From Methanospirillum hungatei JF-1 (GTDB taxonomy: Archaea; Halobacteriota; Methanomicrobia; Methanomicrobiales; Methanospirillaceae): a DNA stretch of 64,000 nucleotides. Below the pieces are notes generated by a model that ran no database searches, was not told the origin of the DNA, and saw only the letters and a list, made by a program, of their open reading frames with translations. Shown piece by piece: positions 10,177-37,069 of the stretch; position 1 is the first letter of the stretch, and the number at the start of each line of letters is the position of its first letter. The translations under genes and the position numbers were made by a program. The DNA lies in contig NC_007796.1 in the NCBI RefSeq assembly GCF_000013445.1, positions 1,710,936-1,774,935 of the forward strand. Direction: 5' to 3'.

Positions 10177-10256
10177 CTGAACATTTCCTGAGATATTTCA
10201 TGGCATGATACCAATTACCGGATGATGAAAAGAAATTCCCAGTACTGAAGATAGTA

Positions 10257-10312: not shown

Positions 10313-10352
10313 CTTGGATCAGGGATAGAAAGAAGGTGTACAGAAAAAATCC

Positions 10353-18647: not shown

Positions 18648-20074
18648 TCACCCGTCGGTCTTTGGAAATTTCCGGAAATTTCCGGAAATGATCCGGAAAT
18701 GATCCGGAAGTGAATATTGTGTACGTTTACTCTCTCCAGTTCTTAGTAATACTCCCATTTCAATCATTTTCTTTAAATCGTTTCTGGCAGTTCTATCGGT
18801 ACATGTAAATAATGAAGCGTATTCGGTTGAATTCAGATGTGAATTTTCCTCCAGAAGATAATGGAATGCTGCTTTCTGGCGATTATTCAATAAAGATAAT
18901 ACCGCTGATATGGATGAATCATCACTTTTCCTGATTATCACCCTGAAATCAATGCCTGAATCGATAAATTCGGGTTCTTCAAGTCCATATTTCAAACACG
19001 TTGAAACCATGGTGGAAGTACCTGTTCCCCATTGCTCAATCATTTTCGCCAGGTATAATAACCGAGCGATATTTTTATTTTTTGGACGTGACAAATGTTC
19101 TCCTTTGAGTGATTCGACAGTAACTCCTGGAGGCAATGTGCCCGGATTCCAAATTTCAATCCGATCATCAAAAATACGGATTTGTACGTTAGCAGATGAA
19201 CTATAATCACGGTGACAAAGGGCATTCGTTACCGCTTCGCGAAGAGCTTCAAGAGGATAATCCCACTCTTCAACACGTTTAAAAGAATCAGGTCCGACTG
19301 TGACTTTCCTGTTGATATGCTTCCGGATAAAGTTTTCAGAGGCTGTTATCTGTTCAAGAAGTGTTCCCTGAATTGGTTCAGCCATGTCAAGGAACCCCTG
19401 ACTCATATCACATCCCTTAAATCGTCCTGCTCTGACCTCACTTTGTTGAATAAAACGCTGAGGGGTTTCACCAAACAGTAAAATTGCGGTATTGGTAGGT
19501 CTTCCCTGAGAGATAAGCTGTAATCGCTCCAATGCATTTTCAGAGGAAATTGTAGTGTCAATCGCTGTTCTTCTCCCCTCCTGTAAAACCTGAAGAAATC
19601 TGGAAACAGATTTGGGATCAATATCTGCGAAGGTCGCTCCTGAACAGGGCAGATTATCCCAGTGATATTCATCCTCCTGTCTGATGATGGTTTGAGTTCA
19701 TCAACAGGCATTCTGATGCTTTCCGTTCCTGAACGAACATATGGCTGTCCGTCAGCGAAATACGGCTTATTAGTTCCTTCAGGTACTGTCACTATAAGAA
19801 ATGATTTTCCATGATATGATTCTGAAGTAAGGGATAACGATATTTCTGGTTTTATTCTGGCACGAATTTTTTGGTTAACTTTTCTAAATGTGGTATCTGT
19901 GATAGTAAGACCAGCGATTTCACCATTCGGTCTGACTCCGAAGTATACTGCTCCCCCACGGTGGTTGAGTAAGGCACAAATGTCTATGATTGCATCTTCG
20001 AGTTCAGATAACCCGGTTTTTAGTTCAATGGTTTCTGACTCTTCTAAATTACTACTACATTGGGGTGATGTCAT
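18648..20074 (-). pseudogene. AlbA_2/ATP-binding putative transcriptional regulator, frameshifted
   Basis: Two overlapping frames encode one protein. The N-terminal part (from about 20074, MTSPQCSSNLEES) has the AlbA_2 (Schlafen-like) domain: ESETIELKTGLSELEDAI, ALLNHRGGAVYFGVRPNG and YVRSGTESI. Near 19680 the frame breaks; the next frame continues with QEDEYHWDNLPCSG and then a HATPase-like C domain (SGIDFRVII) and a winged helix with FTCTDRTARNDLKKM. One base change in a GACAGGAGG tract would restore about 475 aa. The C terminus is built on short direct repeats of TTTCCGGA. Intact relatives are RecG-like regulators. It could be a sequencing error rather than true decay. Confidence 0.8.
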
Positions 20075-20079
20075 AGGGG

Positions 20080-20232
20080 TCAGATATGATTGGTATGGAT
20101 CATTCCTCGAAGCAGACTGGCAATATGGGCTTCTGATATCCAATGCTCCATATTGCTGATATGTTCAAACGATTCAATATACTCTGGGAGTGATAGAATA
20201 TATGTTCTTTTATACCCGTACAGCGATCTCAT
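20080..20232 (-). CDS. possible 50-aa small protein upstream of AlbA_2 gene
   Basis: A minus-strand frame begins MRSLYGYKRTYILSLPEYIE and ends at TGA 20080-20082, 5 bases before the likely start of the AlbA_2 gene. Residue composition looks coding (well-spread hydrophobic and charged residues), and the frame is open a little further upstream (SYGSG). It could be a small partner gene or the tail of a lost gene. No family recognised; weak support. Confidence 0.3.
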   Translation of the reverse strand: MRSLYGYKRTYILSLPEYIESFEHISNMEHWISEAHIASLLRGMIHTNHI

Positions 20233-20935: not shown

Positions 20936-23900
20936 CTACACCCTTCCTCTATACACCGTGATCTCTGCCTTCTCTCCGCCTTCTGCAAACAGGGCCGGGA
21001 AGACTCTCTCATCCCCGTTCCGTTCACAAAACCGTCGGAGATTGAACATATGATTCAGCCCGGCCATTGCATACTTATTTTTCAGGAGTTCATATGACTG
21101 ATCCAGGAGTGGCCGTGAGATGAAGAGGATACATTTCGTCTTCGCCCTGGTCACGGTTACATTCAACCGGTTTAACGAGTAGATGAAGTTCGCTTCTGAC
21201 ATTGCGGTTTCGATATCCGACACTCCGTAACTTGCGATCACTGCCTGACTCTCCTGGCCCTGCATCTTATCCACGGTATCAACAAAGGGTGGATGATGCC
21301 AGGTCATTGATTTATTCAGGAGTTTTCTGATAAGCCGGATCTGTGCATGATGGGGACAGACGATAAAAAGCCCGCTTCCCCAGAACTGTTTATGCCCTTT
21401 TAACGTATCCGGGAAGGTCTCATTGGTTTTGTGATTAATCATGCACTTTTTCAAATAACAGGCGAGTCGTGCGGTGAGGTCTGCCTCGACCATGTTATCC
21501 ACCGTTGCACGGACATTATCAACGATGCAGAGGACGAGGGGATAGTCCGGGTCCAGGGCCCATTTCAGGAATTCTGATCCCTCATCATCCGCTGCGTCAC
21601 ATGGGTCGGTGATGAGTAACTTCCTCCCTGCAATCTTCGCGGTTGCCGGGATGTATCCATTTCCATAGAGGGTTTCAGCCGGGAAGCGGGAGAGGGTTGT
21701 GTTCATCCGGAAGTTTTCGAGGAGCTGGCAGGTATAGACATTCCCGCTATCCCGGTACCGGAGATAGGAGAAGACGGAGTCATACAGGCCGGGGAGTCCG
21801 TCATCCGGCTCGGGGTACTCACCCTGAATCAACGGGGGTAACTGCATATCGTCACCGGCAAGAACCAGCCTGCCATCGGTTTTGAGGATACCGATGACCA
21901 GTGAGAACTCACCGAACTTCATCTGACTTGTCTCATCGACGACCAGCATGTCAAACTGTCCAAGGTTGGTCTCATATTTCTTGATGGCATATACCGTACC
22001 TCCAAGGATGAGGTATGGCTCGGTGGAGCTTGATGCTGCAAGTCCCTGACTGTCGATGAGATCAAACCCGTCCTGACTCTGTTCAGTCAGCCGGTCCAGT
22101 TTCCCAAGGAGTACGTCATCGCTGAGGCCGGCATCGGTGAGGTTGTCGCGTATTTCCCAGAGCAGGTTTTCAATCGCGGTGTGGGTGAATGCGGTGACCA
22201 GGATCCGGAATCGTTTCCCGGCACTTTTGTATGCCTGAAGGAGAGCAACGACGGACTTTGCGAGGAAATGGGTCTTGCCGGTCCCAGGCGGTCCCCAGAT
22301 GAGGGTCATTCTCCGGGTGAGGACGGTGTCGAACGCCTTCTCCTTACTTGGCATGAAATCCGCTGATCTGATATATTCGAGGGCTTTTGATGTGATCTTC
22401 GCATCGGGGGATAGAGGGGATGAGAACCCGGCCGGGTCCCTGAGGAGCTGGAGAAAGAGTGAATCCTCCTTTTGATCTATCTCGATGAGTTGTTTGAAGA
22501 TCTTATCGGAGTTGTAATCCATGAACCGGGGATGGAGGATTGCTTTCTCCCCATCTTCAAAGGGCGTATGGCAGGATTTATACGCGATGTTCATGATTAT
22601 CTCACGGATATTTCCCTCATCATCGACGGTAAAGGGGGATACGTCGCTTGCTGACATGAGTGCCGGCAGATGGTTTGGGAGATAGGGGCGATTCCGGCTT
22701 TGGTAATCGTTCATCTTCATCTGTTGAATATTCCCTTCTTCACTGGTATCGGTGAGGATTGCCCGGAAGGAATAACTGTTGCTCTCGAATAATCCTTCAT
22801 CAAGGGGGGAGTCCAGTTCAAAGACATGTGCTCCGTCCATCGTCTCATACCGGTAGGTGAGCGGGATTGCACTCCCATGCTCGATCCGTTCACTCATGGG
22901 GAGGCACCGTTCTTCCCTGATGGCCATGGCTCCCATGAATGATTCATACCTGACGATGAACCCGATCTGTGAGAGTTCTGTGTTGCGGAAGTTTGCCTGT
23001 GACGGGAAACTGAATCGCTGTGGATAGGCAAAGAGCCGGTCTTTCACCTGGTCCCGGATCCCTCCCAGGATGGAACCCGTTCCGGTCAGTCTCCGGTTCA
23101 CTTCGTTGCGGATGGCGTCTCTATCCTTCTCATCCCCGGTCTTCCAGTATTTGAAGAGGGGATCGCTCTTCATGATGTTGCTGAGGTTGAACCAGAAGAA
23201 TTTACTTGGAGTGATTTGAAAGTCAAATCCGGGTGAGGGGAGATTTTTGAGGATGTCCGGGAGTCTGTAGGTGATATGGACCGGTACTGCCAGGAGTTCG
23301 CGGATGACCTTTGAGAGGACAATTATCGGGTATACCACCTCGTTGGCCGGTTGTTTATCTGCGGTGGATAATACGGTCTCCTGGAAATGGAAGAGGAGGT
23401 GTAATGCCAGTGGTGCGAGGTCAGGGACTTTCAGGCTGTCGAAGAGGAGCCGGTTAAAGAGGGTGAGTTCAAATCCGTCAAAGACATACACCTGCACACT
23501 GACCTGCCTGGCCCACTCTTTTCCGTAATTGTAATCCGCTACCTGTTTCAGGGTAGAGAATACATTCTGAAGGAACTCTGTCTGTGCATGGAGGCAGTCG
23601 TCTGCGTTCCTGGCGATACTGACGAAGGTTCCGACATTGTTTCCCAGGACCTCTTTATCATATGCCGTCCACCGGTATCCCAGCACGGCCAGCCTTCCCG
23701 ACACCGGGTCCTCCTGTAAGGTGAGGAAGAACCGGATCCCCTCACTGACCGGGAGAGCGATGGTCGATCCCCCATGGGATACGAGTGCTCCTTCTTCAAG
23801 TGACTTGACGGTATGCATGAGCCGCTTTCGGTTATTGCGAAGGGAGCCACAGCTGTTTAAGATGTCTTCCGATGCGGGGTCTTTCAGGAACTCCCGGAGT

Positions 23901-24763
23901 TCGGGGATGGTGTTGATGGGTTCTCCGCCCCATTCAGCCTCCCTGAGGTACATCCTGGCCGGGGTGGAGAGGTACGGGATGAGGGAGACGGAGTGTGTCC
24001 GTTCTGCTTCTTCCCGGCAGTTTTCGTAGAACTCACACCATTCACACCGGAAGTTGAGGTGCCAGAAGACGGATTCGATGTCATCGGTGAAGATTGTTTC
24101 AAGGTTAAACCGGAGAAATTCACGGACGATGCTGAGCGAGTGGGATAATTCAAAGATCTCCGGTGCATCGGTGTTGTAGAGCCAGACAAATCCCCGGGTG
24201 AGATCGACGGTGAAGGGGAGGTGCTCCTTTTCTGCGATGGCCTCAAGGATGAGGGCATAGAGGGCGATCTGGATCTGGTGGCTCTGTTTCAATGCATCGC
24301 TGGCCTTTACGTCAATGACCTGGAGGGTGGGTTTTCCGTCTATCTCTGCCATGAAGAGGAGATCGGGCCTGCATGGGGGGAATGCGAACTTCTCTGTATC
24401 GATGCCAAGTTCTTTGATGAGTGACTGTGGCATGACGATGGTCGGCTGGTAGAGATACTCTCCCGGTTTCATCGTTTTGAGAATTGACAGGGTTTCATCG
24501 AGGGTATGGGTCCGTTTATGGAGTGGTCCGTCCCGGTCTGCGATGTGGATCTTCCCGGTGATCCGGTTTGTGATGACCTCTTCTTCCCATTCAAATCCTG
24601 ACTGGAGTATGGCGGCAAGGGCAAGGCTTTGCTGGAATTTGGATTCGGGGATGTGTATCCGTGTTCGTTCTTCGACTGGTGAGGCGTTGTACCGGAGATG
24701 GCGATCACAGCCGAAGTAGTAGTATCGGGCGATGAGTGATGGGGATAAATTATACTTAGTCAT
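20936..24763 (-). CDS. Cas4/Dna2-like nuclease fused to SF1 helicase
   Basis: A 1275-aa protein. The N-terminal 270 residues are a PD-(D/E)XK nuclease of Cas4/Dna2 type: RPDLLFMAEIDG, LQVIDVKASD and, C-terminal to it, CEWCEFYENC, which with an N-terminal Cys (FGCDRHL) could hold a [4Fe-4S] cluster. A long middle region (300-790) has no recognised motif. The C-terminal third is a UPF1/Dna2-like SF1 helicase: Walker A WGPPGTGKTHFLAKS near 822, VDETSQMKFGE (DExx), GDDMQLPP, VDKMQGQES and LNVTVTRAKTK. Dna2-type enzymes process DNA ends. Host-like base composition contrasts with the AT-rich operon next to it; it may be a defence or repair gene of the same island. Not known to be cotranscribed. Confidence 0.88.
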   Translation of the reverse strand: MTKYNLSPSLIARYYYFGCDRHLRYNASPVEERTRIHIPESKFQQSLALAAILQSGFEWEEEVITNRITGKIHIADRDGPLHKRTHTLDETLSILKTMKPGEYLYQPTIVMPQSLIKELGIDTEKFAFPPCRPDLLFMAEIDGKPTLQVIDVKASDALKQSHQIQIALYALILEAIAEKEHLPFTVDLTRGFVWLYNTDAPEIFELSHSLSIVREFLRFNLETIFTDDIESVFWHLNFRCEWCEFYENCREEAERTHSVSLIPYLSTPARMYLREAEWGGEPINTIPELREFLKDPASEDILNSCGSLRNNRKRLMHTVKSLEEGALVSHGGSTIALPVSEGIRFFLTLQEDPVSGRLAVLGYRWTAYDKEVLGNNVGTFVSIARNADDCLHAQTEFLQNVFSTLKQVADYNYGKEWARQVSVQVYVFDGFELTLFNRLLFDSLKVPDLAPLALHLLFHFQETVLSTADKQPANEVVYPIIVLSKVIRELLAVPVHITYRLPDILKNLPSPGFDFQITPSKFFWFNLSNIMKSDPLFKYWKTGDEKDRDAIRNEVNRRLTGTGSILGGIRDQVKDRLFAYPQRFSFPSQANFRNTELSQIGFIVRYESFMGAMAIREERCLPMSERIEHGSAIPLTYRYETMDGAHVFELDSPLDEGLFESNSYSFRAILTDTSEEGNIQQMKMNDYQSRNRPYLPNHLPALMSASDVSPFTVDDEGNIREIIMNIAYKSCHTPFEDGEKAILHPRFMDYNSDKIFKQLIEIDQKEDSLFLQLLRDPAGFSSPLSPDAKITSKALEYIRSADFMPSKEKAFDTVLTRRMTLIWGPPGTGKTHFLAKSVVALLQAYKSAGKRFRILVTAFTHTAIENLLWEIRDNLTDAGLSDDVLLGKLDRLTEQSQDGFDLIDSQGLAASSSTEPYLILGGTVYAIKKYETNLGQFDMLVVDETSQMKFGEFSLVIGILKTDGRLVLAGDDMQLPPLIQGEYPEPDDGLPGLYDSVFSYLRYRDSGNVYTCQLLENFRMNTTLSRFPAETLYGNGYIPATAKIAGRKLLITDPCDAADDEGSEFLKWALDPDYPLVLCIVDNVRATVDNMVEADLTARLACYLKKCMINHKTNETFPDTLKGHKQFWGSGLFIVCPHHAQIRLIRKLLNKSMTWHHPPFVDTVDKMQGQESQAVIASYGVSDIETAMSEANFIYSLNRLNVTVTRAKTKCILFISRPLLDQSYELLKNKYAMAGLNHMFNLRRFCERNGDERVFPALFAEGGEKAEITVYRGRV

Positions 24764-24938: not shown

Positions 24939-27900
24939 TTAATTATTCATATTAATAACCGTTCCAAATCGTAATAGGTTTGAAATTTTTAAATCCATTT
25001 CGTTAAATAAATCAGGATTGCCTCGTGCTACTCGAGATATTGAATGGCCAATTATTACTAAAACTCGAGTTGCTTCTTTACCAATTTGATTTATTTCTTC
25101 ATAATTATCAATAATCTCCTGATGCCCTAATAATTGACCAATAACTTTCAAGTCTTCTGGATTTCGAAAATAATAATGCATATAATCTTTAGAGTAGTTG
25201 AATAACCCCTTAAAAGTTTCTTTTACTAAGGAAAAACCCATTAGTCGTGCAATTTCCCATAACTTTTCTTGACTTAAACCTATTTGCCCATGATTAAAAA
25301 TATTATTAAGATCTTGAGGATTGATTAAATCTCTCCAAATAAAAGAATCTGATTGTGAGTAATCAAGGAGAATATCTTCACCTGTCAAATCGTAATTCGT
25401 TAGTAAATATGCCAAACTAAATAATACATACCGTTCATCCTCATTTAGCCAATGTAACCGCCCCATATTCGACTTATTATATAAATATTCAGGATCTGAT
25501 TCAGTGTCAACAGGAATATTTGATATTACAGTATAAAAGGTGCTTAATGCTGTTAAGGGCTCTAAAATTCTCTCCAAGGAAGAATCCCTTTCGGAAAAAA
25601 AATCATTTAACAGGTAATTATCAACAGTTTCTTTTTCTTCCGTTCCAATATAAAATATTTGGTCTCCTGGAATGAGATCTTCGATAGGAACTAAATCCAA
25701 TTCATCATTCAATCCCTTTTTTCTAATGAGGGTTCTTTCTTTAAAGTAGATTTTTTCTATTACTCCATTTGAGAATTCAACATTTATGGATATTTTATTA
25801 ATTTCCTGATTGTGTCCGGATGAATTATTATGAATATATGTAGATTTTGTAGGTTGGACTGGTTTTTTCTCCAATTCTTTCCAAATATTGCTCAATGTTT
25901 TAAAATCTTCATTTTGAGTGTCAGAATCTGAACTCAATTTGCCATATTCGGCTTTGATGGCGCTATTTAATGGAGATATTTCCACATCAGAAATATTGTC
26001 GCTAATATCTGACTCAATGGCTGGAATTGGTATCCTATTAACGAATTTGTTGTATGTGATTGATCGTTTCAAATCAGAATTACTAATTGGTGAATTCGAT
26101 GATGACAACAAATCATTGCATACTTTGATCTGTGTTAATAGTAAATGCCCATTGAAACCAGGGTAACAGAAAAAAAGAATCTTTTTAAAAGGAAGTAAAA
26201 ATATATCGAAGTATTCACCTAGAACAAGTTGATCGCCCTCCATCTTAAAAAACGGTAAGGGTCCAGGGAAAAGAATATTTTTAGTCTTTGCCTTTTTTGG
26301 AGGTAGTTTTGAAAGATTTTCTAGCGATTGTATTTCAAATTTATAGGTTAATGTCTTGATCTTCTTTTGGTTATTTCCAACGAGAATTATTTCCACTTTG
26401 GTATCATTTTGTGTTCCAAAATTCGTATTGATCTTATGAACACTATTTATCTCCATTACACCATCTTTGTAAAATACAAGTCGTAATAGTTCAATCTTTA
26501 TTACGGATACATCATTGAAACATTCAAATCCAAGGGATCCAGAAATACAATTAAATCCACTGTTAATTGGAAGAAATATTTTTAAATAGACATTACCATC
26601 TTCAATATTCAAATCTGATTGTAAGAAAAAGGGAGAATATCTATTTAGTAGGTCATTTATTGTATTGGATGATTTTAAATTAATTTTTTTATTTTTTGCT
26701 AACAGAACGGGATTTTCATTAATTGTTAACCATACTTCTTCTTCGTTTTCTTCTATACTAATATTATGAATAAAAAAGACAATGGTTTCTAATGCCTCGA
26801 ATAACACTCGAATTGTATTTGCAATCGCCTTATTGGTTCCACATTTAGAATTAAAATTAGAAAGAATAAATTCCTCTGTGTTTGATTCTCTGAAATTTCC
26901 TCTAGAAATATCAAAATACTCCTTAATGTCCGTAGATATTAAATTTAATAGAAATGATTGGAGTAGAGTTTTTTTCCTTATTGATTTGCACGTTGGGAGA
27001 TTGAGTAATTCATTTTTTATATCACGGGCTTTATCAAGATCATAGATAATATCAAAAAATGATTGAATGATTGATGAATTTTGATTTGGTAATGATTCAA
27101 TTACTAAATTCAATGGTAAAAACCTATAATTATTAGATGTATGAGAAAATAGTAATGTTTCACTTGGAGATAGAAAAGAATCAATAATCGGGGGGAATTT
27201 AATAATATTTCTTAAATATGAAGTTTTAGCAATAAGATCTTCAGAAAAATTTCTTCTGATAATTCTTAGGGAATCATAAAATTGCATTGTGCCATTGTGT
27301 AAATAATCCAATTGATTCTCTAATTTCCGAGGATAAGTGTTATTAGGGAAAATTATCGATAAATTTTTTAAGAGATTATTTGATGGATAATATACATCAT
27401 CCCATAATTCTCCTTCAAATGATAAATTGACACAGTCATTACGGGGTTTTTGAATTTGATTAGATATTTTCTTACAAAATACTTTTCCAAAATGATATAC
27501 TGCAATATCTAATTCAGAAAATTCAGATATCTTATTAAGAAAACTTTGAAGTTTCGGAACATATGGCCATGAAAAATGTAAAACTAATTTTATATTTTGG
27601 TTTTTCGTTTGTTCTATTAAATAGAATAATGCGTCAGGGTCAAAAGGTCGTTCATTAATTGATTCAATAATTATGAGTCCTGGTGACAATTTTTCAATAT
27701 TATAAGCGCTTTGTTCAAATGTAATATTCGAATTATTTATAATTCCAGCTGGAATGGAATAAAAAGATGGAATAACTGCAATTTTTCTAGATGTATCTTT
27801 TCTACTTTTTAGTTTATTTTCAAGGTATTGCTTATATTCATTTTTAAAATTATTTTTACCATGAACCGGCGAAGTTTCAATTATAAATTCCTTAATATTA

Positions 27901-28301
27901 CTACCTTCAACATCTAACTCACCTTTACAAAAAAGGATATCTTGTTCAAATAAGAAGAAAGGGTGTGTTTCAATATTGTTGTTGATATATTTTGTAAATA
28001 GAAGCGAAAAAAATATTTTTTGATAATTTTTATATTGATCTTGGAAGGATAATGGAGGGATTAAAACTATTACATCTTTTTTTTCATTTATTGCATATAA
28101 TATAGAGACTAATGGAGTAATATTTAATGGACCTTGACCTACAATGATGTTTATTTGTTTTTGTAAAATAGATTCGATTATATCAAGAGATGTGTCAGAT
28201 AGTTGGTCATTCCTTCCAGATAATACCTTGATTTGATCCCTACCCTGTGTGATGTAATGCAAAGATGCAATATTTTCTGGAGATAGATTGAAAAATGCCA
28301 T
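24939..28301 (-). CDS. uncharacterised 1120-aa protein of DISARM-like operon (possibly DrmE-like)
   Basis: The last gene of an AT-rich defence operon, starting 4 bases after the drmB-like stop. I do not recognise a firm family. The N-terminal 250 residues resemble a helicase/NTPase-like fold: NIIVGQGPLNITPLVS stands where a P-loop would be but lacks GKT, KKDVIVLIPPLSF follows, and LIIIESINERPFDPDALF resembles a Walker B strand. Later, a small beta domain ends in LVPIEDLIPGDQIFYIG (about residue 855), a pattern also seen in DrmE-type proteins. The C terminus (900-1120) is helical. No transmembrane or PLD (HxK) motif. By position it may fill the DrmE role of class 2 DISARM; this is inference. 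Confidence 0.6.
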   Translation of the reverse strand: MAFFNLSPENIASLHYITQGRDQIKVLSGRNDQLSDTSLDIIESILQKQINIIVGQGPLNITPLVSILYAINEKKDVIVLIPPLSFQDQYKNYQKIFFSLLFTKYINNNIETHPFFLFEQDILFCKGELDVEGSNIKEFIIETSPVHGKNNFKNEYKQYLENKLKSRKDTSRKIAVIPSFYSIPAGIINNSNITFEQSAYNIEKLSPGLIIIESINERPFDPDALFYLIEQTKNQNIKLVLHFSWPYVPKLQSFLNKISEFSELDIAVYHFGKVFCKKISNQIQKPRNDCVNLSFEGELWDDVYYPSNNLLKNLSIIFPNNTYPRKLENQLDYLHNGTMQFYDSLRIIRRNFSEDLIAKTSYLRNIIKFPPIIDSFLSPSETLLFSHTSNNYRFLPLNLVIESLPNQNSSIIQSFFDIIYDLDKARDIKNELLNLPTCKSIRKKTLLQSFLLNLISTDIKEYFDISRGNFRESNTEEFILSNFNSKCGTNKAIANTIRVLFEALETIVFFIHNISIEENEEEVWLTINENPVLLAKNKKINLKSSNTINDLLNRYSPFFLQSDLNIEDGNVYLKIFLPINSGFNCISGSLGFECFNDVSVIKIELLRLVFYKDGVMEINSVHKINTNFGTQNDTKVEIILVGNNQKKIKTLTYKFEIQSLENLSKLPPKKAKTKNILFPGPLPFFKMEGDQLVLGEYFDIFLLPFKKILFFCYPGFNGHLLLTQIKVCNDLLSSSNSPISNSDLKRSITYNKFVNRIPIPAIESDISDNISDVEISPLNSAIKAEYGKLSSDSDTQNEDFKTLSNIWKELEKKPVQPTKSTYIHNNSSGHNQEINKISINVEFSNGVIEKIYFKERTLIRKKGLNDELDLVPIEDLIPGDQIFYIGTEEKETVDNYLLNDFFSERDSSLERILEPLTALSTFYTVISNIPVDTESDPEYLYNKSNMGRLHWLNEDERYVLFSLAYLLTNYDLTGEDILLDYSQSDSFIWRDLINPQDLNNIFNHGQIGLSQEKLWEIARLMGFSLVKETFKGLFNYSKDYMHYYFRNPEDLKVIGQLLGHQEIIDNYEEINQIGKEATRVLVIIGHSISRVARGNPDLFNEMDLKISNLLRFGTVINMNN

Positions 28302-28305
28302 ATAT

Positions 28306-30240
28306 TTACCTTATATATCCCTGATATGATGGCCACTTTGTTCCTTCTTTCCTACCTCTTAATGTTGCTCGGTCCAAGTTGTGATTAAATCTTTCGCATA
28401 CAAATTCGGGAAGGTATGAACATGCTATACAGGCACCTCCTTCATCGTACAAACATCCTGGATCTTGAGGGCAATCATATGCAAATTCGAACACTTTCGA
28501 AAACCAATCGGAGAGATAATTGTCGTAGGTAAATTCCAATCCACCAATATTTATCGCATTTGTAGAATAGATAAAAAATGAGCCTTGTATTGGATATATT
28601 ATCTCAGAAAGACTTTGATTGTCAAGTCCGGTAAAAATGGATGACTGTTGAATAAGTAAATGACAATATGTGTGTAGTAGTGTCTCGATGTGGATTCTTA
28701 CATGGGGGTCTTCTCGAACAAGTTTTCTATAAGTGATTTCATCTTTGTTTCGAATATTCGAAAGATTAATATTCGCTTTTATGGTACTTTGGTTATCTAA
28801 AATCCAATTAATGAGTTTTTCATGATCTAATTGGAACAAAATTCCCTCTGTTTGATATTGTCTTACATATACTGTCGGGGTTTTCCGTTTTCCTTCATAG
28901 ATAGGAGAAAATATAATAGGATCTCGACGAGTTGATCCTGCAACATTCCCAAGCATAGCTTGGACAAGATTAATATTTGATATATGTCGAATTCCGATTA
29001 AACCTTGGCTTTTAATCCAATCGTCATAATTTTCATTAAAAGATAATGGAGCATTTCGAATAACTGGAGATGATGAACCCGGAATTCTCGTAGGTGAAGA
29101 GCTATTTAAGAAATCTCCCTGCAAATCTTTTTCACTATAATCGATTGCTTTTACTGTCTCTAATACGTCTTGGATCTGGTATAATCCAAACCTAGTTTTA
29201 ATTTTATCCGGATTTGGACTTTCTTTAATATGATTATACCCAACCTTTAAAAGAGTTTTAATTATTTTTAAAAATTGTTCTTGAGACCAAGATAGGTAAT
29301 TGGTACAATCAAGGCCAAGCATTTCAGATAATTCATCAATTTTATCAAGAGCCCAAAATTGAGTATTATTCTCTAATGAACTTCTAAATTCAGGCAAATA
29401 TAATACCGATTCATCATATGAGGGTCCAAAAATTTCATTAATTGCTTCAGCTAATACCCTTGCATCGGTATTTCTTCTACCATTACGGTCTAATTCTCCT
29501 TCTTGCGGAATATCCGGAATGACAATAATATAGGGATGCAAGACGGCTCCAGCTTTTGCTGAAGTAATTCGATATTTTCGAGGAGGGTTTAAACTAAGTG
29601 GTATATCATCAGATTGGAATTTTTTATGATTACAAAAGTAGATGATCAGGTTTTCTACATGCCCACATTTGTGGCATTTTATAGAATATGTGGCAAAATC
29701 ATTTCTATCTCGCCAATTTAAAATTGATAATCCATTTTCCTCATTACAACCAGGACAATTAGAGAGTAAATTCGATGCACGATGCAATGGAACAAATAAT
29801 CCGCATTCATCACAAACTGCGATAAAAGTAACTTGTCTTGGTTTTTTAGATGAATCGTGACCGCATTTTTTCCCTTTACTTATGACAAAATAATGATTAC
29901 ATACTGGACACATAGCAGCATTGGGAAAAACGGTAAAAATGCCTGATTTTCCTTCAGAATTTTTATCGTCAATAAATTTTAAGGATTTAAAATTGAGGTC
30001 AAAGGGTTGAAGGAGCGGTAATGTACCGCCCGCTCCCTGATTTCGCCTTGAAATAAGTGTGTTAATGGTTTTTACAAATGTTCTTCGAAACTTTTCAATA
30101 TTTATTCCATTCAGAGCTTCATCGTCGTTCCATAATCTCTCGATAAGATAACTTCGTATTCCTTTTGAAAAGAATTGTTCTGGGTTTCCTTGAAAAAATG
30201 CACTATTTTCCTGAATTTGGTGGGTAATAATTGGAATCAT
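28306..30240 (-). CDS. drmB: DrmB-like DUF1998 protein
   Basis: A 644-aa protein. Zinc-binding pairs in the N-terminal half: CPVCNHYF, CDECGLF, CPGC and CHKCGH. The C-terminal DUF1998 core is clear: LLHTYCHLLIQQSS, FIYSTNAINIGGLEFT, CPQDPGCLYDEGG, CIACSYLPEFVCE and NHNLDRATLRG. DUF1998 proteins accompany DrmA helicases in DISARM, where the two form a DNA-binding complex. It starts 2 bases after the drmA stop, so the genes are coupled. The composition is very AT-rich compared with host genes. Family assignment is strong; anti-phage role is inferred from the pairing. Confidence 0.87.
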   Translation of the reverse strand: MIPIITHQIQENSAFFQGNPEQFFSKGIRSYLIERLWNDDEALNGINIEKFRRTFVKTINTLISRRNQGAGGTLPLLQPFDLNFKSLKFIDDKNSEGKSGIFTVFPNAAMCPVCNHYFVISKGKKCGHDSSKKPRQVTFIAVCDECGLFVPLHRASNLLSNCPGCNEENGLSILNWRDRNDFATYSIKCHKCGHVENLIIYFCNHKKFQSDDIPLSLNPPRKYRITSAKAGAVLHPYIIVIPDIPQEGELDRNGRRNTDARVLAEAINEIFGPSYDESVLYLPEFRSSLENNTQFWALDKIDELSEMLGLDCTNYLSWSQEQFLKIIKTLLKVGYNHIKESPNPDKIKTRFGLYQIQDVLETVKAIDYSEKDLQGDFLNSSSPTRIPGSSSPVIRNAPLSFNENYDDWIKSQGLIGIRHISNINLVQAMLGNVAGSTRRDPIIFSPIYEGKRKTPTVYVRQYQTEGILFQLDHEKLINWILDNQSTIKANINLSNIRNKDEITYRKLVREDPHVRIHIETLLHTYCHLLIQQSSIFTGLDNQSLSEIIYPIQGSFFIYSTNAINIGGLEFTYDNYLSDWFSKVFEFAYDCPQDPGCLYDEGGACIACSYLPEFVCERFNHNLDRATLRGRKEGTKWPSYQGYIR

Positions 30241-30242
30241 GA

Positions 30243-33200
30243 TTATTGAATTTGGTTAATGTATTGCTCATCGTCAGGCTTCAATTGCAAAATCAATTGT
30301 TTTTGAATACCTCTCATACCGGTTTGATTTCGATAATACGAATCGCCGCTATTATGTGAGAGAATATTAGGGAAAAAGGTATTATCTGAAAAAACAGTAT
30401 CTTCAACGATAAAACTGATTCTCTCTTTGACTTCCCTCTCGATGTCAATTTCATTTTGTCCTCCATAAATCTCTTGAATCCCATTAATAATTTCTTTAAT
30501 CTCTACTTCTTTTAAGGATTTAATATGTTTTTTTCTGTAAAGTGGTTCTCCTCGAATGTTCGAGATGTGATTGATTATTAGAGCACAAAAAATTGAATTC
30601 AAGGTTTGGTAATATCCTAGTCGGGCAGAACGAGTTATTGGGACCGGTTTGACCTGGTGGTCCAAGGTATCATGATATCGATAAAAATTCCGATAGAAAC
30701 TATCATCTCTCACTCGAGTTGGATAAAACCAAACAATTATTAGACCCAATTTTTTCCTACCAACTCGGGATAGGGCCTGGATGTATTCAGAGGTCGAATA
30801 GGGGATCCCTTGAAATACCATGAAATTGAGTTCCTCAAGATCCACTCCATGAGATATCACAGAAGTAGCATATAGGGGATCAATAGTTAAAGTTTCAGAA
30901 AGAACTTTTTCAGGATTGTAATTTTTAATATAATCACGAACCTCATTCATTGCGACTTTTAATTCTTCGAGTTTAGAGTCTCCAGTTAAAACTTTACCTA
31001 TGACTGAACCCGGGTACCTTTGCGAAAGCTCACCATTGATGATATAATCTCTAAATCGAGACATATCTTGAACATCCTGCTTTTTTAAATGATAGGTTAC
31101 TGGAACAATAAATTGGGTAATGATATCTTGAGCTTCTTGAGGTGTCTTACATCCATATTTTTTTGTGAATTCATCTGGGTTTTTAAGAAGAGTCAATTGT
31201 GCCTCAATGATAAATTCAGCATAATATAATAGAGTACGAAGGGTTGCAGTGTGGTTATCCTGCATATTTGGCTTTAATCCACAAATAATACGTTTTGGTC
31301 CATTTAATTTTTCAAAGAAGAAGTCTTTACTTGATCCTATTCCTTCTGGAGAAGTTCCTGGGATAATAATCGTGTTTTTATTGTATAATTCATGAATTTG
31401 AGTTTTAGTGCCGTTTAATGTAGCACTCATTGCAATATGCTTAATTTTATGGTTGGAAGTCTTATTCACAATATATTCAATAAGACTTTCAAAATGAGAT
31501 GAAATGGTCCCAAACCCTTCTTTTAATAAATGCATCTCATCTTGTATCGATAAAATTGGCCCGTCATGACCCTCCTCATCTCCCCCAATTTTTTTACACG
31601 AATAGGCTTCCTCTTTATTGTCTTCGCAGTAATCTCCTGAAGGTATGAATCCATGTTTATATGGGCATTGTGATCCAGATCCCCCAAGCAAATTTCTTGC
31701 CCTTCTTTGTGATGATAAACCTGCCCACTTATCCACTGTAGATACAATGACCGATGGACGCCATCTGAATATTTCTCTGTCTGAATAATAAATGAAAAAT
31801 TCACGATTACATGAATTACATCGATGGACTATTCTTTTATGAATTTCATCATCATGTAAAGATACAATTCCTTCTTCTTTCTCCCTACAAAAAGGACATT
31901 TTGGAAGGATGAGAGAAGATGGAGCAGGTTCAATGACTTTTCCCCTATGATACAATTGAGATCTAATTTCAGCATATTTAGAAGGAAACTCTTCTGAATT
32001 ACCAATGTAATAGCCTAATGAAAAAGGTTCTCCTTGAGGGAGCAAATTATTCTTTCGGATATCGTCAGCGTTAACTACAATTGTCGCAAGACGTTCTAAT
32101 TGTTGAATTGATAGCATCCTCAAAGGAAATTTGACGATTGAATGTACTCCTCTATTATATCCTTTCATCCTATTGTAAAATAGTGCGAAGGTTATTACAG
32201 CAAAATATGCTTCGGATTTTCCTCCCCCAGTATCCACATGAAGTACATGAACCGTATCTAAATTCTCTCGTTTTACTATTGAACTCAACAAAGAGATGAT
32301 GAAAACAATCTGAAATAGACGCCATTCACCATTGGGATTGTTTTGTTGTAGGTATGTCTGGTAAAAGGTTTCATTCATTAAATTGAAGGCAGATAAAACG
32401 TCCTGATTGTTTTCCAATAAATTTATCCCATTACTCAGTTCCTTTAACACCTGTTTAAATTGAATAATTTGGTCTCTTTTTTCAGATACTGAACGTTGTC
32501 TCTTCCCCTCTCTTATGAGAAATCCCTTCTGTGGTAGCGTATTTAGTTCTTCGTCAAAATCCGTTTCTAGTTTCCTGAATGCTATAAGTAACTTGTGCAA
32601 TTCTGTTATTGATTCAGTTTTACTTCTTAACTTGTTAAAACTGAGAATACTATTTTCCAATGAATTTTTTGGTCGAATATTTGGTTGCTCAAATAGTCCA
32701 TAATGAGTAGTTTTAAATGAAATACCTGGTTCTCTCCATTCAACCTGACAGTTTATTGGACGAAATGAATAGAAATACTTTTGATTATTCCCTTCATATT
32801 CATATTCATCAGAAAATTCCAAAACGTGAATATTTTCCAGAGAAACATTCATAACAAAATTGAATAATGTTCTTTCATAGGGTTGTTGGGGAATTGGATC
32901 AATACTATTATTTAATGCCTCGATGGAAATAAGAGAAGAAGTATCATCATATGATGATTGATATACCTCAATTGAAGCATTCCATAAATCAAGTGGTATC
33001 TTTTTTTCACATAAGGGATCTGAATTAATTTTCTCGACTACAGTATCAAATGGTATACAATATTTTCCCTTTAACGGATATTCAAGAGTAAATTCAAAAG
33101 AAAATGATTCCCTTTTCCAATTTCGTCCGATTAATTCATTATCAGAAGATTTAGGTTTATCTATTACTTCCTCATTCGTCGAAGAAGGCGATCTTAAATA

Positions 33201-33491
33201 ATAGACATATCCATTTCCATTGATCTTAATTGAAGATTTTTTTGATAAACTAGATGTTTCTACTGGGAAGACGATTTTATGCATCTGGGCACGTATGATG
33301 TTTTCTTTCTCAATTTTGACCTCATCAATGTCTTCTATTTGAGGTTTTTTGGGTGCTAGTGAGCCAATAAAAAAACGATTACTAGGCCTAACGTTAATTT
33401 CTGTGTCTAAATCATGTGAACCTGAGCAACGAGCGATGATATATTGTAGCAGATCGCTTACAAAGGCTTTTTGAGAATCAATTGTCGTCAT
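30243..33491 (-). CDS. drmA: DrmA-like SF2 helicase
   Basis: A 1082-aa protein. Motif I is VDTGGGKSEAYF (about residue 420), a form of the TGGGKTEAY motif of DrmA. Motif II is DEMHLLKEGFGTISSHFES (about 650), followed by SATLNG. The C-terminal RecA lobe has SHGVDLEELNFMVFQGIP and TSEYIQALSRVGRKKLG. Zinc-binding insertions are seen at CPFCREK...CNSCNREF and CPYKHGF...YSCKK. The N-terminal 400 residues are unique. DrmA helicases translocate on DNA and are part of DISARM. It is followed 2 bases later by the drmB-like gene. No methyltransferase gene is linked. Confidence 0.85.
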   Translation of the reverse strand: MTTIDSQKAFVSDLLQYIIARCSGSHDLDTEINVRPSNRFFIGSLAPKKPQIEDIDEVKIEKENIIRAQMHKIVFPVETSSLSKKSSIKINGNGYVYYLRSPSSTNEEVIDKPKSSDNELIGRNWKRESFSFEFTLEYPLKGKYCIPFDTVVEKINSDPLCEKKIPLDLWNASIEVYQSSYDDTSSLISIEALNNSIDPIPQQPYERTLFNFVMNVSLENIHVLEFSDEYEYEGNNQKYFYSFRPINCQVEWREPGISFKTTHYGLFEQPNIRPKNSLENSILSFNKLRSKTESITELHKLLIAFRKLETDFDEELNTLPQKGFLIREGKRQRSVSEKRDQIIQFKQVLKELSNGINLLENNQDVLSAFNLMNETFYQTYLQQNNPNGEWRLFQIVFIISLLSSIVKRENLDTVHVLHVDTGGGKSEAYFAVITFALFYNRMKGYNRGVHSIVKFPLRMLSIQQLERLATIVVNADDIRKNNLLPQGEPFSLGYYIGNSEEFPSKYAEIRSQLYHRGKVIEPAPSSLILPKCPFCREKEEGIVSLHDDEIHKRIVHRCNSCNREFFIYYSDREIFRWRPSVIVSTVDKWAGLSSQRRARNLLGGSGSQCPYKHGFIPSGDYCEDNKEEAYSCKKIGGDEEGHDGPILSIQDEMHLLKEGFGTISSHFESLIEYIVNKTSNHKIKHIAMSATLNGTKTQIHELYNKNTIIIPGTSPEGIGSSKDFFFEKLNGPKRIICGLKPNMQDNHTATLRTLLYYAEFIIEAQLTLLKNPDEFTKKYGCKTPQEAQDIITQFIVPVTYHLKKQDVQDMSRFRDYIINGELSQRYPGSVIGKVLTGDSKLEELKVAMNEVRDYIKNYNPEKVLSETLTIDPLYATSVISHGVDLEELNFMVFQGIPYSTSEYIQALSRVGRKKLGLIIVWFYPTRVRDDSFYRNFYRYHDTLDHQVKPVPITRSARLGYYQTLNSIFCALIINHISNIRGEPLYRKKHIKSLKEVEIKEIINGIQEIYGGQNEIDIEREVKERISFIVEDTVFSDNTFFPNILSHNSGDSYYRNQTGMRGIQKQLILQLKPDDEQYINQIQ

Positions 33492-33527
33492 TTTTCTCTC
33501 TAATTTTTTATTAAACGGATAAAAAGG

Positions 33528-33965
33528 TTATTTACTCTTATTCATGATTAATAAGAAATCCTCTTCCGGGATCTCACGCATTGCTACTCGCAAATGACCG
33601 GACCACATTGTTTTATTCGTGATAAACTTGAGGTCATTAATAAGAGGTTTGAATTCAACAGGTTCTTTAAAAATATTCACCGGTTTCAGTTGAAATCGAT
33701 ATGGAAAGATTTCATCACCCATCTGTGGAGGGGGGATGAAGAGCCTACTCTGATCTTCAAAACATTTCTCCACTTGGAATGCCCCTGTGATTGCAGAGGG
33801 GAGAAGTGTATTTCCATGCTGTTCTGCCCGAACGTAAATAAGGATTTTATCTCCTGGTGCTACCCGAGTTAGAAGACTTTTATTTCGCTTCGGCACACCC
33901 CAAATATCATTATTCCGAATGATTTCCCAATTTGGTCGGTTCGATGAAGCGATCCAATAGGACAT
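33528..33965 (-). CDS. EVE-domain (PUA-like, UPF0310) protein
   Basis: A 145-aa protein that is almost entirely one EVE domain: MSYWIASSNRPNWEII, WGVPKRNKSLLTRVAPGDKI, ILIYV and a terminal MWSGHLRVAMREIPEEDF. EVE domains bind modified bases such as 5-methylcytosine by base flipping and are often found beside restriction genes. It is the first gene of the drmA-drmB operon, 36 bases ahead of drmA. An IS1 element begins about 80 bases upstream of its start and may affect its promoter. Confidence 0.85.
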   Translation of the reverse strand: MSYWIASSNRPNWEIIRNNDIWGVPKRNKSLLTRVAPGDKILIYVRAEQHGNTLLPSAITGAFQVEKCFEDQSRLFIPPPQMGDEIFPYRFQLKPVNIFKEPVEFKPLINDLKFITNKTMWSGHLRVAMREIPEEDFLLIMNKSK

Positions 33966-34045: not shown

Positions 34046-35142
34046 GGTACTGGCCTCCTTTAGAACTGAACATGGTAGTTTAAAAACTCACTCCAATTCC
34101 AAAGATGATCAGTAATACTTTCTAACATTGCTGGAGACTTGTGACTACTTTTTACTTCGATAAAATTATGCACAAATTGAAAGATATTTAGCGCTGAAAT
34201 GAATCTATTGAGTTTTTTTGAAAAAGAGGCAGTTTTCCTTCCAAAACGGCTCAATCGTTGTCTGATTTTATTATTGTAGCCCTCAATGACTGAGGTAGAG
34301 ATTGCTTTACTATCTGGATTTCCCATAATTTTCTCTCGAATGACATAAACAAGTTTATTCTTCTCTTTTACTTTGATCACCTGACCATAATCCAAGCATG
34401 GCTCACAATATAATTCAGGTAAACAAATGCTATATTGGACGTTTCCATCAGTAAAAATCGATATTTTGTTTTCTGGCGTTGGAAGTTCCATTCGGTTAAA
34501 AAATCGAACTAACATATCTGCACAAGTATCAATATTTCTTTTTCCAGATTCAAATGCTAAAAATAATCCAGAATCCCTTTTAAAACAAGTATAGGACCAA
34601 CAATCACCTAATTCTTCAGAGTCAGTTGTTAGGAGATTCTTGTTTTTTTTTGAACAAACTCCCAAATTTCATCCATCTCACAATCCCCCGCGGAAATGTC
34701 ATGAATAAAATAATCGTTGAGTTTTTCAGCATGTTCACCGATTAAGTGATAATATCGAGATATAGTGTCGCGATGGTGTCCGGTAACTCGAGATACTCCT
34801 CGAATTGAAGTTTTTTCAGTCGAGTGTTTCGCAATTATGAGAACAGCAGTTCGTGGTAAACGAGAATCATACAGAGGAGTATTTTTAGTTTCAATAAAAA
34901 AACGTCGACAGTGATGGCAATAGTACTGTTGATTGCCTGCAGAATTATGCCCATTTTTAGTAATATTCTTTCCATCTTCAATTTGAAAATAAGTACAATC
35001 CGGATTTTGACACGTAATCAATATAGGACCACGTTTTCCAACCATGAAAATAATTATATCTAAACTTATATTAATTTTTAGTACATAAAATTTAATACTT
35101 TATTTGCACTTAGTATTACCAGCTTGCTAACAGGGCACTACC
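34046..35142 (-). mobile_element. IS1-family insertion sequence, complete, 8-bp target duplication
   Basis: The element is 1097 bp. Its ends begin GGTACTGG (left, 34046) and, on the minus strand, GGTAGTGC (right, ending 35142), like the GGTA ends of IS1. It is flanked on both sides by GAGTAATT (34038-34045 and 35143-35150), a perfect 8-bp direct repeat, so this is a clean and probably recent insertion. It carries one transposase made by programmed frameshift. It lies just upstream of the EVE/drmA/drmB operon. Confidence 0.93.
34060..35045 (-). CDS. IS1-family transposase, made by -1 frameshift (InsAB')
   Basis: Two frames: the first (35045 to 34629) encodes an InsA-like zinc finger and helix-turn-helix (CQNPDC, YYCHHCRRFF, TSIRGVSRVTGHHRDTISRY). 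The second (entered near 34650, ending 34060) encodes the InsB-like DDE catalytic part with TSVIEGYNNKIRQRLSRFGRKT. They overlap at a run of nine A then C, which contains the slippery heptamer A AAA AAC used by IS1. A -1 slip joins the frames. Both are uninterrupted, so the transposase is probably functional. Confidence 0.88.
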
Positions 35143-35394
35143 GAGTAATTAGCAATGATTTAATTAAGAAAACCGATTATATCCTGAATTCCTTCTTTTT
35201 GGCCATTCTTCTTTATCATATACAGGTTTTATAAAAACCGTAACAATTCAGGTTTTAGAAAGTAATCAAAAATAGAGAAATCTACTTCTATAGGATTATT
35301 CCCCCATAATATATTTGTTTGTCATCTTTTTTCTGATAAAAAATCAAGGGAATTTAGTAAGTATTAAATACCATAGATATCTAATAGATATCTA
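35143..35394. other. AT-rich leader of IS66-type element, no gene
   Basis: This 250-bp stretch has no convincing frame. It contains short dyads (AGGTTTTATAAAAACC at about 35223) and a repeated ATAGATATCTAAT box just before the DUF2080 start, likely its promoter. The left limit of the IS66-type element is not established; a sequence weakly like the right end appears near 34022, outside the IS1 element, so the IS1 may have landed inside the IS66 leader. Confidence 0.35.
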
Positions 35395-35559
35395 ATGAGA
35401 ACTGTTCCATTCAATGTTGCTACAGAACTGAAGGTAAACAACATTTGTGGATTTTATAAACGAGAAGTCAAACCCTTTGGAACAAGTGCGAAAGTAGATT
35501 GTCCCAAGGAACATTTGGGTAAAACGGTTTATTTGGTTATTCTGGATAATGACGAATAA
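35395..35559 (+). CDS. DUF2080 transposon-encoded small protein
   Basis: A 54-aa protein with VKPFGTSAKVDCPKEHLGK, the hallmark of DUF2080 proteins that precede transposase genes in archaea. It overlaps the IS66 transposase start by 11 bp, consistent with coupled expression. It is thought to be a DNA-binding accessory or regulator; the role is not settled. Confidence 0.85.
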   Translation: MRTVPFNVATELKVNNICGFYKREVKPFGTSAKVDCPKEHLGKTVYLVILDNDE

Positions 35560-37069
35560 TAGGACTTCCGAAATCAGTGATGAATCTATAGACGATTTAC
35601 GGCGTAATATCCATCAATTAAAGAAAGAACTTAAAATTGAACGTAAACGCAGAATTTTAGCAGAAAACCAAAAAAATGAACTGAAAAAGGAAAATAAAAA
35701 ACTCAAAAAAGAAATTGCAAAAATATTGAGTTCTGCACCTTTTCTTTCAGCATCAAGTAAAACAGCTAAAGCAGGAGGAGTTCCGAGTTCAAAGACCTTT
35801 TATCGCCGGAAGAGGCAGTGTGAAGAAAATAGGAAAAGTGGAGGTCAACCAGGGCATGAAGGAAATGGAAGGAAAAGACCCGCTTCAAATTCACCATCGA
35901 TGAATATCCCCTTGGATTCATGTCCTGAATGTGGAACGCATTTGAATGAACCAGTCAACGGGGCGGAACAAACACGCACCATTACGGATATTCCATTTCC
36001 AAGGCACATCGTTTACGAAATCCATTATCCGAGGTATTGGTGTTCAACTTGCAAGAAATTAGTACGTGGAGAGTTGCCCTTACCGCCAAACCAGCAATTC
36101 GGACCTGCTGTAGCCTCTTGGATTGCTTATCATAGAATGTTAGGATTGACTATAAGGAAAATCCAATCCAGCCTCTTAGAAACATACGATATTCAAATGA
36201 GTGAAGCTACCATTCTGAAACTGGAAAGGTGGGTTGCAGATACTCTCAAAGAAGATTACGAAAAACTCAAAGAAAAGATAATTCAGGAGAACAATATCAA
36301 TGCAGATGAAACCAGTTTCAGAGTGAATGGAGAAAATGGATGGTTGTGGGTATTCACTTCGACAATTGGCTCATATTACAAAGTGGCATCAACTCGAGGA
36401 CATTCGGTTCCCGAAGAAGTTTTAAAAGGATTTAATGGCGTTTTAGGAAGAGATGCATGGAAACCATATGATGTCATAATGTGTTCAGGGCATCAGTTAG
36501 ATCTTCTTCATGTGAATCGATGGTTGGAAAGAGCAGAAATAAAGCACAAAATTGAACCGCGAAGTTTATTGACCTCTCAACCAGTCAAAATACTAAGAAA
36601 AGGCAGACCTCCAGAAAAATTTCTTGAATTTGTTGATGGAGTTCGTTCGATTCTAAAAAAAGCGGTAGAATATACTGAAAATGATCCTCCACCATCTTTG
36701 GATGAACGGAAAAATGCACGTGATAAATTTCAGGCTGAGCTTACGGGCTTGCTTGAACGAAAATGGGTAGATCCAGATGTTATTCGTATTTTCAAAGAAC
36801 TTCGAAAACGGCAAGATATGTTACTTACTTTCATGGTCCATGAGGATGTTCCAGGGCATAATAATGATGCGGAACGTGCCATACGTCAGGGGGTACTTCA
36901 TCGAAAAATTAGTGGGGGGAGAAGAACATGGCTCGGAGCTGAAGTATTTGGAGTCTTGCTTAGTATTTACGAAACTTCGAAGAAACAAAAGGAGAATTTC
37001 ATGCAATTGGTGGGAAGAAAGTTAGGATTTGAAGCACCTGTCGAGAATGGCAATTGTTCAACTTCCTAA
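35549..37069 (+). CDS. IS66-family transposase
   Basis: A full-length 506-aa TnpC-type transposase. Order: N-terminal leucine-rich coiled coil (15-65), zinc-finger domain (CPECGTHL and WCSTCKKLVRGELPLPP), then the DDE catalytic core with NADETSFRVNGENGWLWVF, GRDAWKPYDVI, and the closing NNDAERAIRQGVLHRKISGG. No internal stops. The 3' side ends at about 37080, where a truncated MntA gene begins, so the element probably inserted into an MntA/HepT locus. Confidence 0.93.
   Translation: MTNNRTSEISDESIDDLRRNIHQLKKELKIERKRRILAENQKNELKKENKKLKKEIAKILSSAPFLSASSKTAKAGGVPSSKTFYRRKRQCEENRKSGGQPGHEGNGRKRPASNSPSMNIPLDSCPECGTHLNEPVNGAEQTRTITDIPFPRHIVYEIHYPRYWCSTCKKLVRGELPLPPNQQFGPAVASWIAYHRMLGLTIRKIQSSLLETYDIQMSEATILKLERWVADTLKEDYEKLKEKIIQENNINADETSFRVNGENGWLWVFTSTIGSYYKVASTRGHSVPEEVLKGFNGVLGRDAWKPYDVIMCSGHQLDLLHVNRWLERAEIKHKIEPRSLLTSQPVKILRKGRPPEKFLEFVDGVRSILKKAVEYTENDPPPSLDERKNARDKFQAELTGLLERKWVDPDVIRIFKELRKRQDMLLTFMVHEDVPGHNNDAERAIRQGVLHRKISGGRRTWLGAEVFGVLLSIYETSKKQKENFMQLVGRKLGFEAPVENGNCSTS

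What the first reader, a model, noticed from the sequence alone, without database searches (positions are those of the whole stretch)
24939..33965. DISARM-like operon with no methyltransferase and no DrmC
Four tightly spaced minus-strand genes (gaps 36, 2 and 4 bases) encode an EVE-domain protein, a DrmA-like helicase (TGGGKSEAY, DEMH), a DrmB-like DUF1998 protein and a 1120-aa unknown. Known DISARM systems (classes 1 and 2) carry drmA and drmB with drmC and a DNA methylase. Here no methylase, no PLD gene and no SNF2 DrmD are present within the operon or the flanking 10 kb. This combination may be a distinct DISARM branch.
Basis: partly seen in the sequence, partly recalled or inferred. Interest (0 to 1): 0.88.

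Follow-up and report, generated by a model that had tools for sequence, protein, structure and literature searches.

The report
Stripped archaeal DISARM lacking its methylase
This is an archaeal anti-virus gene cluster of the DISARM kind, from a branch whose members carry a radical-SAM enzyme gene where other DISARM systems carry a DNA methylase; the copy read here has lost even that gene, and the branch suggests cells may mark their own DNA with a chemistry not yet described.

Summary
Four tightly packed minus-strand genes at 24939-33965 encode EVE, DrmA-like, DrmB-like and 1120-aa proteins. No DNA methylase, DrmC or DrmD was found nearby, and the genome has no C5 methylase. In 16 homologous loci, mostly archaeal, the core is drmA-drmB-(drmC)-drmE-like. 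A radical-SAM gene (B12-binding-like N-terminus) is adjacent in all 16 and a DNA methylase in none; 11 conventional archaeal DISARM loci have no such radical-SAM gene and 7 have a methylase. On the DrmA tree the radical-SAM loci are separated by a 100/100 branch, and the window copy lies inside them. The 1120-aa protein is most likely a very divergent DrmE. The missing drmC and radical-SAM genes are losses in the window lineage. EVE and the downstream nuclease-helicase are unrelated neighbours. In three other methanogens the same radical-SAM gene, twice paired with a DpdB/DndB-like DGQHR gene, sits beside PbeA/PbeC with no DndC seen. So it looks like an exchangeable modification module replacing methylation or phosphorothioation. 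What it modifies is untested. The window copy is either a reduced system relying on DrmAB alone or a remnant.

The parts
30243..33491 (-). drmA-like SF2 (YprA-family) helicase, 1082 aa
   Evidence: PADLOC DrmA 2.2e-93, NCBIfam DrmAS 287 bits (below its cut-off of 950); 7s9v DrmA E 1e-111; 48-53% identical to the radical-SAM branch
28306..30240 (-). drmB-like protein with C-terminal MZB/DUF1998-type Zn domain, 644 aa
   Evidence: PADLOC DrmB 2e-18, NCBIfam DrmB_fam 60 bits; 41-44% identical to homologues, C-terminal cysteines invariant
24939..28301 (-). 1120-aa protein, probable divergent DrmE
   Evidence: 31% identical to ~1110-aa proteins in the same operon position; weak Pfam DrmE_C in homologues; profile-profile match to DrmE E 2.9e-5 against 0.18-0.74 for controls
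33528..33965 (-). stand-alone EVE-domain protein, 145 aa; probably a separately acquired neighbour
   Evidence: Pfam EVE 82.6 bits, NCBIfam PRK00809; multi-copy in relatives, absent from homologous operons; GC3 38% against 21-26% for drmA/B/E
20936..24763 (-). neighbour, not part of the system: 1275-aa TM0106/RecB-like nuclease + SF1 helicase
   Evidence: orthologue in 41 of 199 relatives, away from the DISARM operon in G121 and G151; GC 52%
34060..37069 (.). IS1-like transposase in two overlapping frames (34060-35045, minus) and IS66 transposase (35549-37069, plus) bordering the operon upstream

Best explanation
The operon is a reduced member of an archaeal DISARM branch whose core is DrmA-DrmB-(DrmC)-DrmE-like and whose DNA methylase is replaced by a radical-SAM enzyme with a B12-binding-like N-terminal domain, in Methanomicrobiales paired with a DpdB/DndB-like DGQHR protein. 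In complete members DrmA/DrmB would load on foreign DNA, translocate, and block it or expose it to DrmC, while the radical-SAM (+DGQHR) pair would put a non-canonical mark on host DNA, as DrmM methylation or Dnd phosphorothioation does elsewhere. In the window copy drmC and the radical-SAM gene have been lost. What remains could act only as a DrmAB(E) translocase that tells self from non-self by DNA structure (5' single-stranded ends), borrowing another nuclease or acting by blockage. Shown by sequence: gene content, family membership, phylogenetic place, adjacency of the radical-SAM gene. Inferred: DNA as its substrate, self-marking, and any activity of the window copy.
For: 16 homologous loci carry an adjacent radical-SAM gene and none a DNA methylase; 11 conventional archaeal DISARM loci carry no such radical-SAM gene and 7 carry a methylase. 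DrmA tree: the radical-SAM loci plus the window are one side of a 100/100 branch of length 1.28; the window lies in a 100/100 sub-clade with 12 radical-SAM loci; one change between radical-SAM and methylase states. CxxxCxxC cluster motif invariant; model pLDDT 86.6, best solved matches MtaB, MiaB with RNA, CysS and TokK. The same radical-SAM gene sits beside PbeA/PbeC, with no DndC seen, in three other methanogens, twice with DGQHR. Pbe is known to depend on DNA modification (PMC6459918). DpdB is described as driving dPreQ0 insertion into DNA (PMC12839542). DrmC was reported dispensable and DrmAB senses DNA ends (PMC9142583). Window DrmA keeps its catalytic motifs and is not on an accelerated branch.
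Against: No experiment or methylome shows DNA modification by this radical-SAM family. The states are phylogenetically clustered (one transition), so the methylase/radical-SAM swap is one evolutionary event, not 16. Most viral homologues of the enzyme have no DGQHR partner. Four of 11 conventional loci also lack a methylase within the stretch read. The window genome itself has neither enzyme.
Confidence: 0.6

Rival explanations
1. The window copy is a decaying remnant: drmC and the modification module were deleted, IS elements flank the operon, and it no longer defends.
For: Only member of the clade without the radical-SAM gene; IS1-like and IS66 genes upstream; in the sister genome G008 the one gene seen has a 1-base deletion in a T8 run and no drmA was found.
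Against: All ORFs in the window are full length; DrmA and DrmB keep the invariant residues; the branch is not longer than its neighbours. Over 212 codons of the 1120-aa gene dN/dS against G008 is about 0.28, from only 19 changes. G008 is a fragmented assembly and the deletion lies near a contig end.
Confidence: 0.3
2. EVE-DrmA-DrmB-DrmE-like is a working system of its own in which the EVE protein reads modified bases in place of a self-mark.
For: EVE gene 36 bases upstream and co-directional; class 1 DrmA is reported to carry an N-terminal EVE-like domain (PMC12458937).
Against: No homologous operon has the EVE gene; EVE is multi-copy (55 of 199 relatives) and elsewhere lies beside other genes, in this genome beside an HsdM-like gene; its GC3 differs from the operon.
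Confidence: 0.12
3. The radical-SAM enzyme modifies a protein or RNA, or serves another purpose, and the branch discriminates self only by DNA structure.
For: Nearest solved folds are MiaB/MtaB (tRNA methylthiotransferases) and B12 enzymes acting on small molecules. DISARM was reported to act on phages lacking methylation sites (PMC9142583). Viral copies mostly stand alone.
Against: It occupies the place of a DNA-modification component next to two unrelated effector sets (DISARM and Pbe) and travels with a DndB/DpdB-like protein.
Confidence: 0.3
4. The downstream 1275-aa RecB-like nuclease/helicase has replaced DrmC as the system's nuclease.
For: Co-directional, 175 bases downstream, has a predicted nuclease domain; also adjacent in G008.
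Against: Orthologue in 41 of 199 relatives, most of them without the 1110-aa protein; on another contig than the DISARM operon in G121 and G151. GC 52% against 29-34% for the operon. Between the window and G008 its dS is 0.28 against 0.07 for the neighbouring DISARM gene, so the two have different histories.
Confidence: 0.08

Closest known systems
DISARM class 2 (drmA, drmB, drmC, drmE + C5 methylase drmMII)
   Same: DrmA/DrmB split helicase and DUF1998-type protein, DrmC in relatives, probable DrmE
   Different: No methylase in any of 16 loci; radical-SAM gene instead; DrmE-like gene downstream of drmC rather than upstream of drmA; DrmA separated by a 100/100 branch; window copy also lacks drmC
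DISARM class 1 (drmD, drmMI, drmA, drmB, drmC)
   Same: drmA and drmB; an EVE-like domain is part of class 1 DrmA per PMC12458937 and a separate EVE gene lies upstream here
   Different: No DrmD, no DrmMI; a DrmE-like gene is present, which the PADLOC definition of type I prohibits (PMC9252829)
ARMADA / BRIGADE / TALON (YprA-helicase systems, PMC12458937)
   Same: YprA-family helicase defence operons; BRIGADE combines such helicases with base modification
   Different: Helicase and DUF1998 part are in separate genes here as in DISARM; no PglX methylase, BrxHII helicase or deazaguanine genes seen; that paper's text does not mention radical SAM or DrmE
DndCDEA-PbeABCD (PMC6459918)
   Same: Modification-dependent archaeal defence; in three loci here PbeA/PbeC sit beside the same radical-SAM gene
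   Different: Modification by DndCDEA phosphorothioation; no DndC seen at the radical-SAM loci
Dpd (7-deazaguanine in DNA)
   Same: The DGQHR partner matches DpdB/DndB families
   Different: No DpdA, DpdC or DpdJ orthologue identified in the operons

Membership tests
DISARM (core) | DrmA helicase | tested here: met
   PADLOC DrmA 312 bits, 7s9v E 1e-111; NCBIfam equivalog cut-off of 950 not reached (287)
DISARM (core) | DrmB DUF1998-type partner next to drmA | tested here: met
   PADLOC DrmB 64 bits; NCBIfam DrmB_fam 60 bits, below its cut-off of 240
DISARM class 2 | DrmC PLD protein | tested here: not met
   Absent in the window; present in relatives except G387 and G433
DISARM class 2 | DrmE | tested here: inconclusive
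   1120-aa protein aligns to DrmE over the C-terminal ~180 columns, E 2.9e-5, prob 74; Pfam DrmE_C only E 0.07-0.12 in its homologues; N-terminal part not matched; model too weak
DISARM class 2 | C5 methylase DrmMII | tested here: not met
   None in the window or in the whole genome
DISARM class 1 | DrmD SNF2 helicase and DrmMI methylase | tested here: not met
   Neither in the operon or adjoining genes by PADLOC/Pfam; no N6 methylase ORF in the window
radical-SAM DISARM branch (this report) | DrmA inside the branch | tested here: met
   100/100 sub-clade with 12 radical-SAM loci
radical-SAM DISARM branch (this report) | adjacent B12-binding-like radical-SAM gene | tested here: not met
   Absent from window and genome; present in all 16 other loci
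DISARM (any) | protects against viruses or foreign DNA | not testable with these tools
   needs expression in a host

The most novel reading that the evidence does not exclude
A radical-SAM enzyme, with or without a DGQHR/DpdB-like partner, lays down a so far undescribed DNA modification (for example C-methylation or methylthiolation of a base) that serves as the self-mark for at least two unrelated effector sets in archaea, a DISARM branch and Pbe, and is also carried by viruses as protection.
Probability: 0.45. Interest if true: 0.92.

Novelty: new variant of a known kind. Interest (0 to 1): 0.72.

Why it matters
DISARM is defined by its link to DNA methylation. A branch that has no methylase but consistently carries a radical-SAM gene, which also stands next to Pbe effectors without DndC, points to a modification chemistry that methylation-centred screens and standard system definitions would miss. 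It may explain some of the solitary PbeAC loci that PMC6459918 left without a modification partner. It makes a direct test possible in culturable methanogens by sequencing native DNA.

Tried and rejected
1120-aa protein in plasmids and viral contigs: no homologue. Downstream nuclease-helicase as a system part: rejected on distribution, GC and dS. EVE as a conserved component: rejected. Methylase elsewhere: no C5 methylase in the genome; N6/N4 methylases elsewhere in the genome were not counted. If the organism is Methanospirillum hungatei JF-1 (its genome length, 3,544,738 bp, matches from memory only), six methylation motifs are known for it (PMC10689673). Structure of the 1120-aa protein: model too weak (pLDDT 70, pTM 0.55), no significant PDB match, the best listed include SF2 helicases. 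Literature: DISARM with radical SAM gave only papers that, by title and abstract, do not describe such a system, and radical SAM with DGQHR gave one methods paper; the original DISARM paper is not held. Searching the phylum of the Omnitrophota locus failed because a genome handle was needed.

Full report
Observation. The four ORFs exist at the stated coordinates with the stated spacing. EVE: Pfam 82.6 bits. DrmA: PADLOC 312 bits; solved DrmA 7s9v matches the family profile at E 1e-111. DrmB: PADLOC 64 bits. The 1120-aa protein alone hits nothing. The window is one stretch of a 3,544,738-base single-contig archaeal genome; from memory this is the length of Methanospirillum hungatei JF-1, which I could not verify with the tools.

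Homologues. A search of 199 related genomes found four full-length relatives of the 1120-aa protein at about 31% identity, and a scan of 84,980 species added loci in Methanoculleus, Methanoregula, Methanoperedens, Methanococcoides and a few MAGs. All carry drmA and drmB in the same order, except one contig (L023) that begins inside the 1110-aa gene. Between drmB and the 1110-aa gene they have a ~268-aa PLD protein that matches DrmC. Next to the block, upstream or downstream, every one with enough flank has a 356-493 aa radical-SAM protein with a B12-binding-like N-terminus. In Methanomicrobiales it is paired with a ~475-aa DGQHR protein related to DndB and DpdB.

Survey. DrmA was sought in 394 genomes of the phylum; 20 have a full-length or nearly full-length match. 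Their loci, with those above, fall into two sets. Radical-SAM set: 16 loci, order drmA-drmB-drmC-drmE-like (drmC missing in G387 and G433), radical-SAM adjacent in 16 of 16, C5 or N6 DNA methylase in none. Conventional set: 11 loci, usually drmE-drmA-drmB-drmC, radical-SAM in none, DNA methylase in 7; in the other four none was found in the stretch read. The methylase test used a C5 profile built from the conventional set, one N6 methylase as query and a motif scan, so an unusual methylase could be missed. One MAG contig (L030) ends inside the operon and was not counted. The Omnitrophota and Clostridiales MAG loci may be binning errors.

Phylogeny. On the DrmA tree the radical-SAM loci and the window are one side of a 100/100 branch of length 1.28; the window is in a 100/100 sub-clade with 12 radical-SAM loci, and radical-SAM versus methylase needs one change. 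The place of the window as first branch of that sub-clade is weakly supported (82/76). Since the outer members (G273, G387, G433) and the next branch (G328) have the radical-SAM gene, its absence in the window is most simply a loss. The states are clustered, so the 16 loci are not independent events.

The 1120-aa protein. In G273 and G387 the same position holds 825- and 862-aa proteins over the Pfam DrmE_C cut-off, and the G387 one hits a profile of the 1110-aa family at 8.6e-8. Profile against profile, the 1110-aa family matches DrmE at E 2.9e-5 over the C-terminal ~180 columns, against 0.74, 0.18 and 0.22 for DrmA, DrmB and the radical-SAM family. I take it as a divergent DrmE; the N-terminal two thirds are not matched.

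Neighbours. The 1275-aa nuclease-helicase is found in 41 of 199 relatives; it has GC 52% against 29-34% for the DISARM genes. Against G008, dS is 0.28 for it and 0.07 for the adjacent DISARM gene, which suggests the DISARM block moved between species separately. In eight relatives tested the operon is lower in GC than its flanks. EVE is multi-copy, with a paralogue beside an HsdM-like gene in the same genome (HsdM-like by eye).

What the radical-SAM enzyme may do. The cluster motif CxxxCxxC is invariant. The model (pLDDT 86.6) is closest to MtaB, MiaB, CysS and TokK. A search of the same phylum sample with the radical-SAM profile found three loci (L164, L166, L169) where it stands beside PbeA and PbeC, in two of them with DGQHR, and no DndC was seen in the stretches read; L166 has a DndA-like cysteine desulfurase with an IscU-like gene about 4 kb away, probably housekeeping. 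Pbe defence depends on DNA phosphorothioation (PMC6459918). Relatives occur in phages and beside DGQHR genes on alphaproteobacterial plasmids. This supports, but does not prove, a DNA-modification module.

Mechanism. DrmAB is reported to load on 5' single-stranded ends, with DrmC dispensable and ATPase reduced by methylated DNA (PMC9142583). I infer that complete members pair this translocase with a radical-SAM mark. The window copy has neither mark nor DrmC; it may still act through DrmAB(E), or be a remnant. The tools cannot separate these.

Novelty. No paper found in the held library describes a radical-SAM DISARM, but most subscription papers are not held.

Noticed in passing
L164:8000-15449, L166:9371-16682, L169:9420-17145: PbeA-PbeC plus a ~139-164 aa small gene beside the radical-SAM gene (with DGQHR in L164 and L166), no DndC seen; in L169 an HSP90-type ATPase gene lies between.
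   Followed up: partly
L059-L132; L133:6995-8077; L134:5968-6999: Relatives of the radical-SAM enzyme in 74 viral contigs and 16 phage records, closest Marinitoga camini virus 1 (45% identity); most stand without a DGQHR gene.
   Followed up: partly
L061:7803-9098: Viral radical-SAM ORF with an N-terminal cysteine-rich stretch that by eye resembles the N-terminus of the DGQHR proteins, suggesting a fusion of the two partners.
   Followed up: no
L136:4383-11200, L137:6988-11128: Rhizobium and Novosphingobium plasmids with DGQHR, radical-SAM and ATP-binding genes in a row, with PIN-like genes nearby: another possible effector partner.
   Followed up: no
L162:9359-14701: Radical-SAM gene next to an SNF2-type helicase and two genes that look ParB-like by eye; no DrmA.
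   Followed up: no
window 18648-20143: Schlafen AlbA_2 and RecG-C-type HATPase domains in two overlapping frames, probably one gene broken by a frameshift.
   Followed up: no
window 34060-35045: IS1-like transposase in two overlapping frames (with IS66 following at 35549-37069) directly upstream of the EVE gene.
   Followed up: no
L018:1-714 against window 24939-28301: G008 carries a near-identical tail of the 1120-aa gene with a 1-base deletion in a T8 run near the contig end; dS four times lower than for the next gene.
   Followed up: yes
L057:4812-7277 and 9930-12371: Two DrmE-like genes with an 810-aa ORF between them upstream of a conventional drmA.
   Followed up: no
L053:566-4198: SNF2 helicase with a PLD-like N-terminal domain beside a drmE-drmA-drmB set that has no separate drmC.
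   Followed up: no
L156:4987-7096: Second EVE paralogue (66% identical) of this genome, divergent from an HsdM-like gene.
   Followed up: partly
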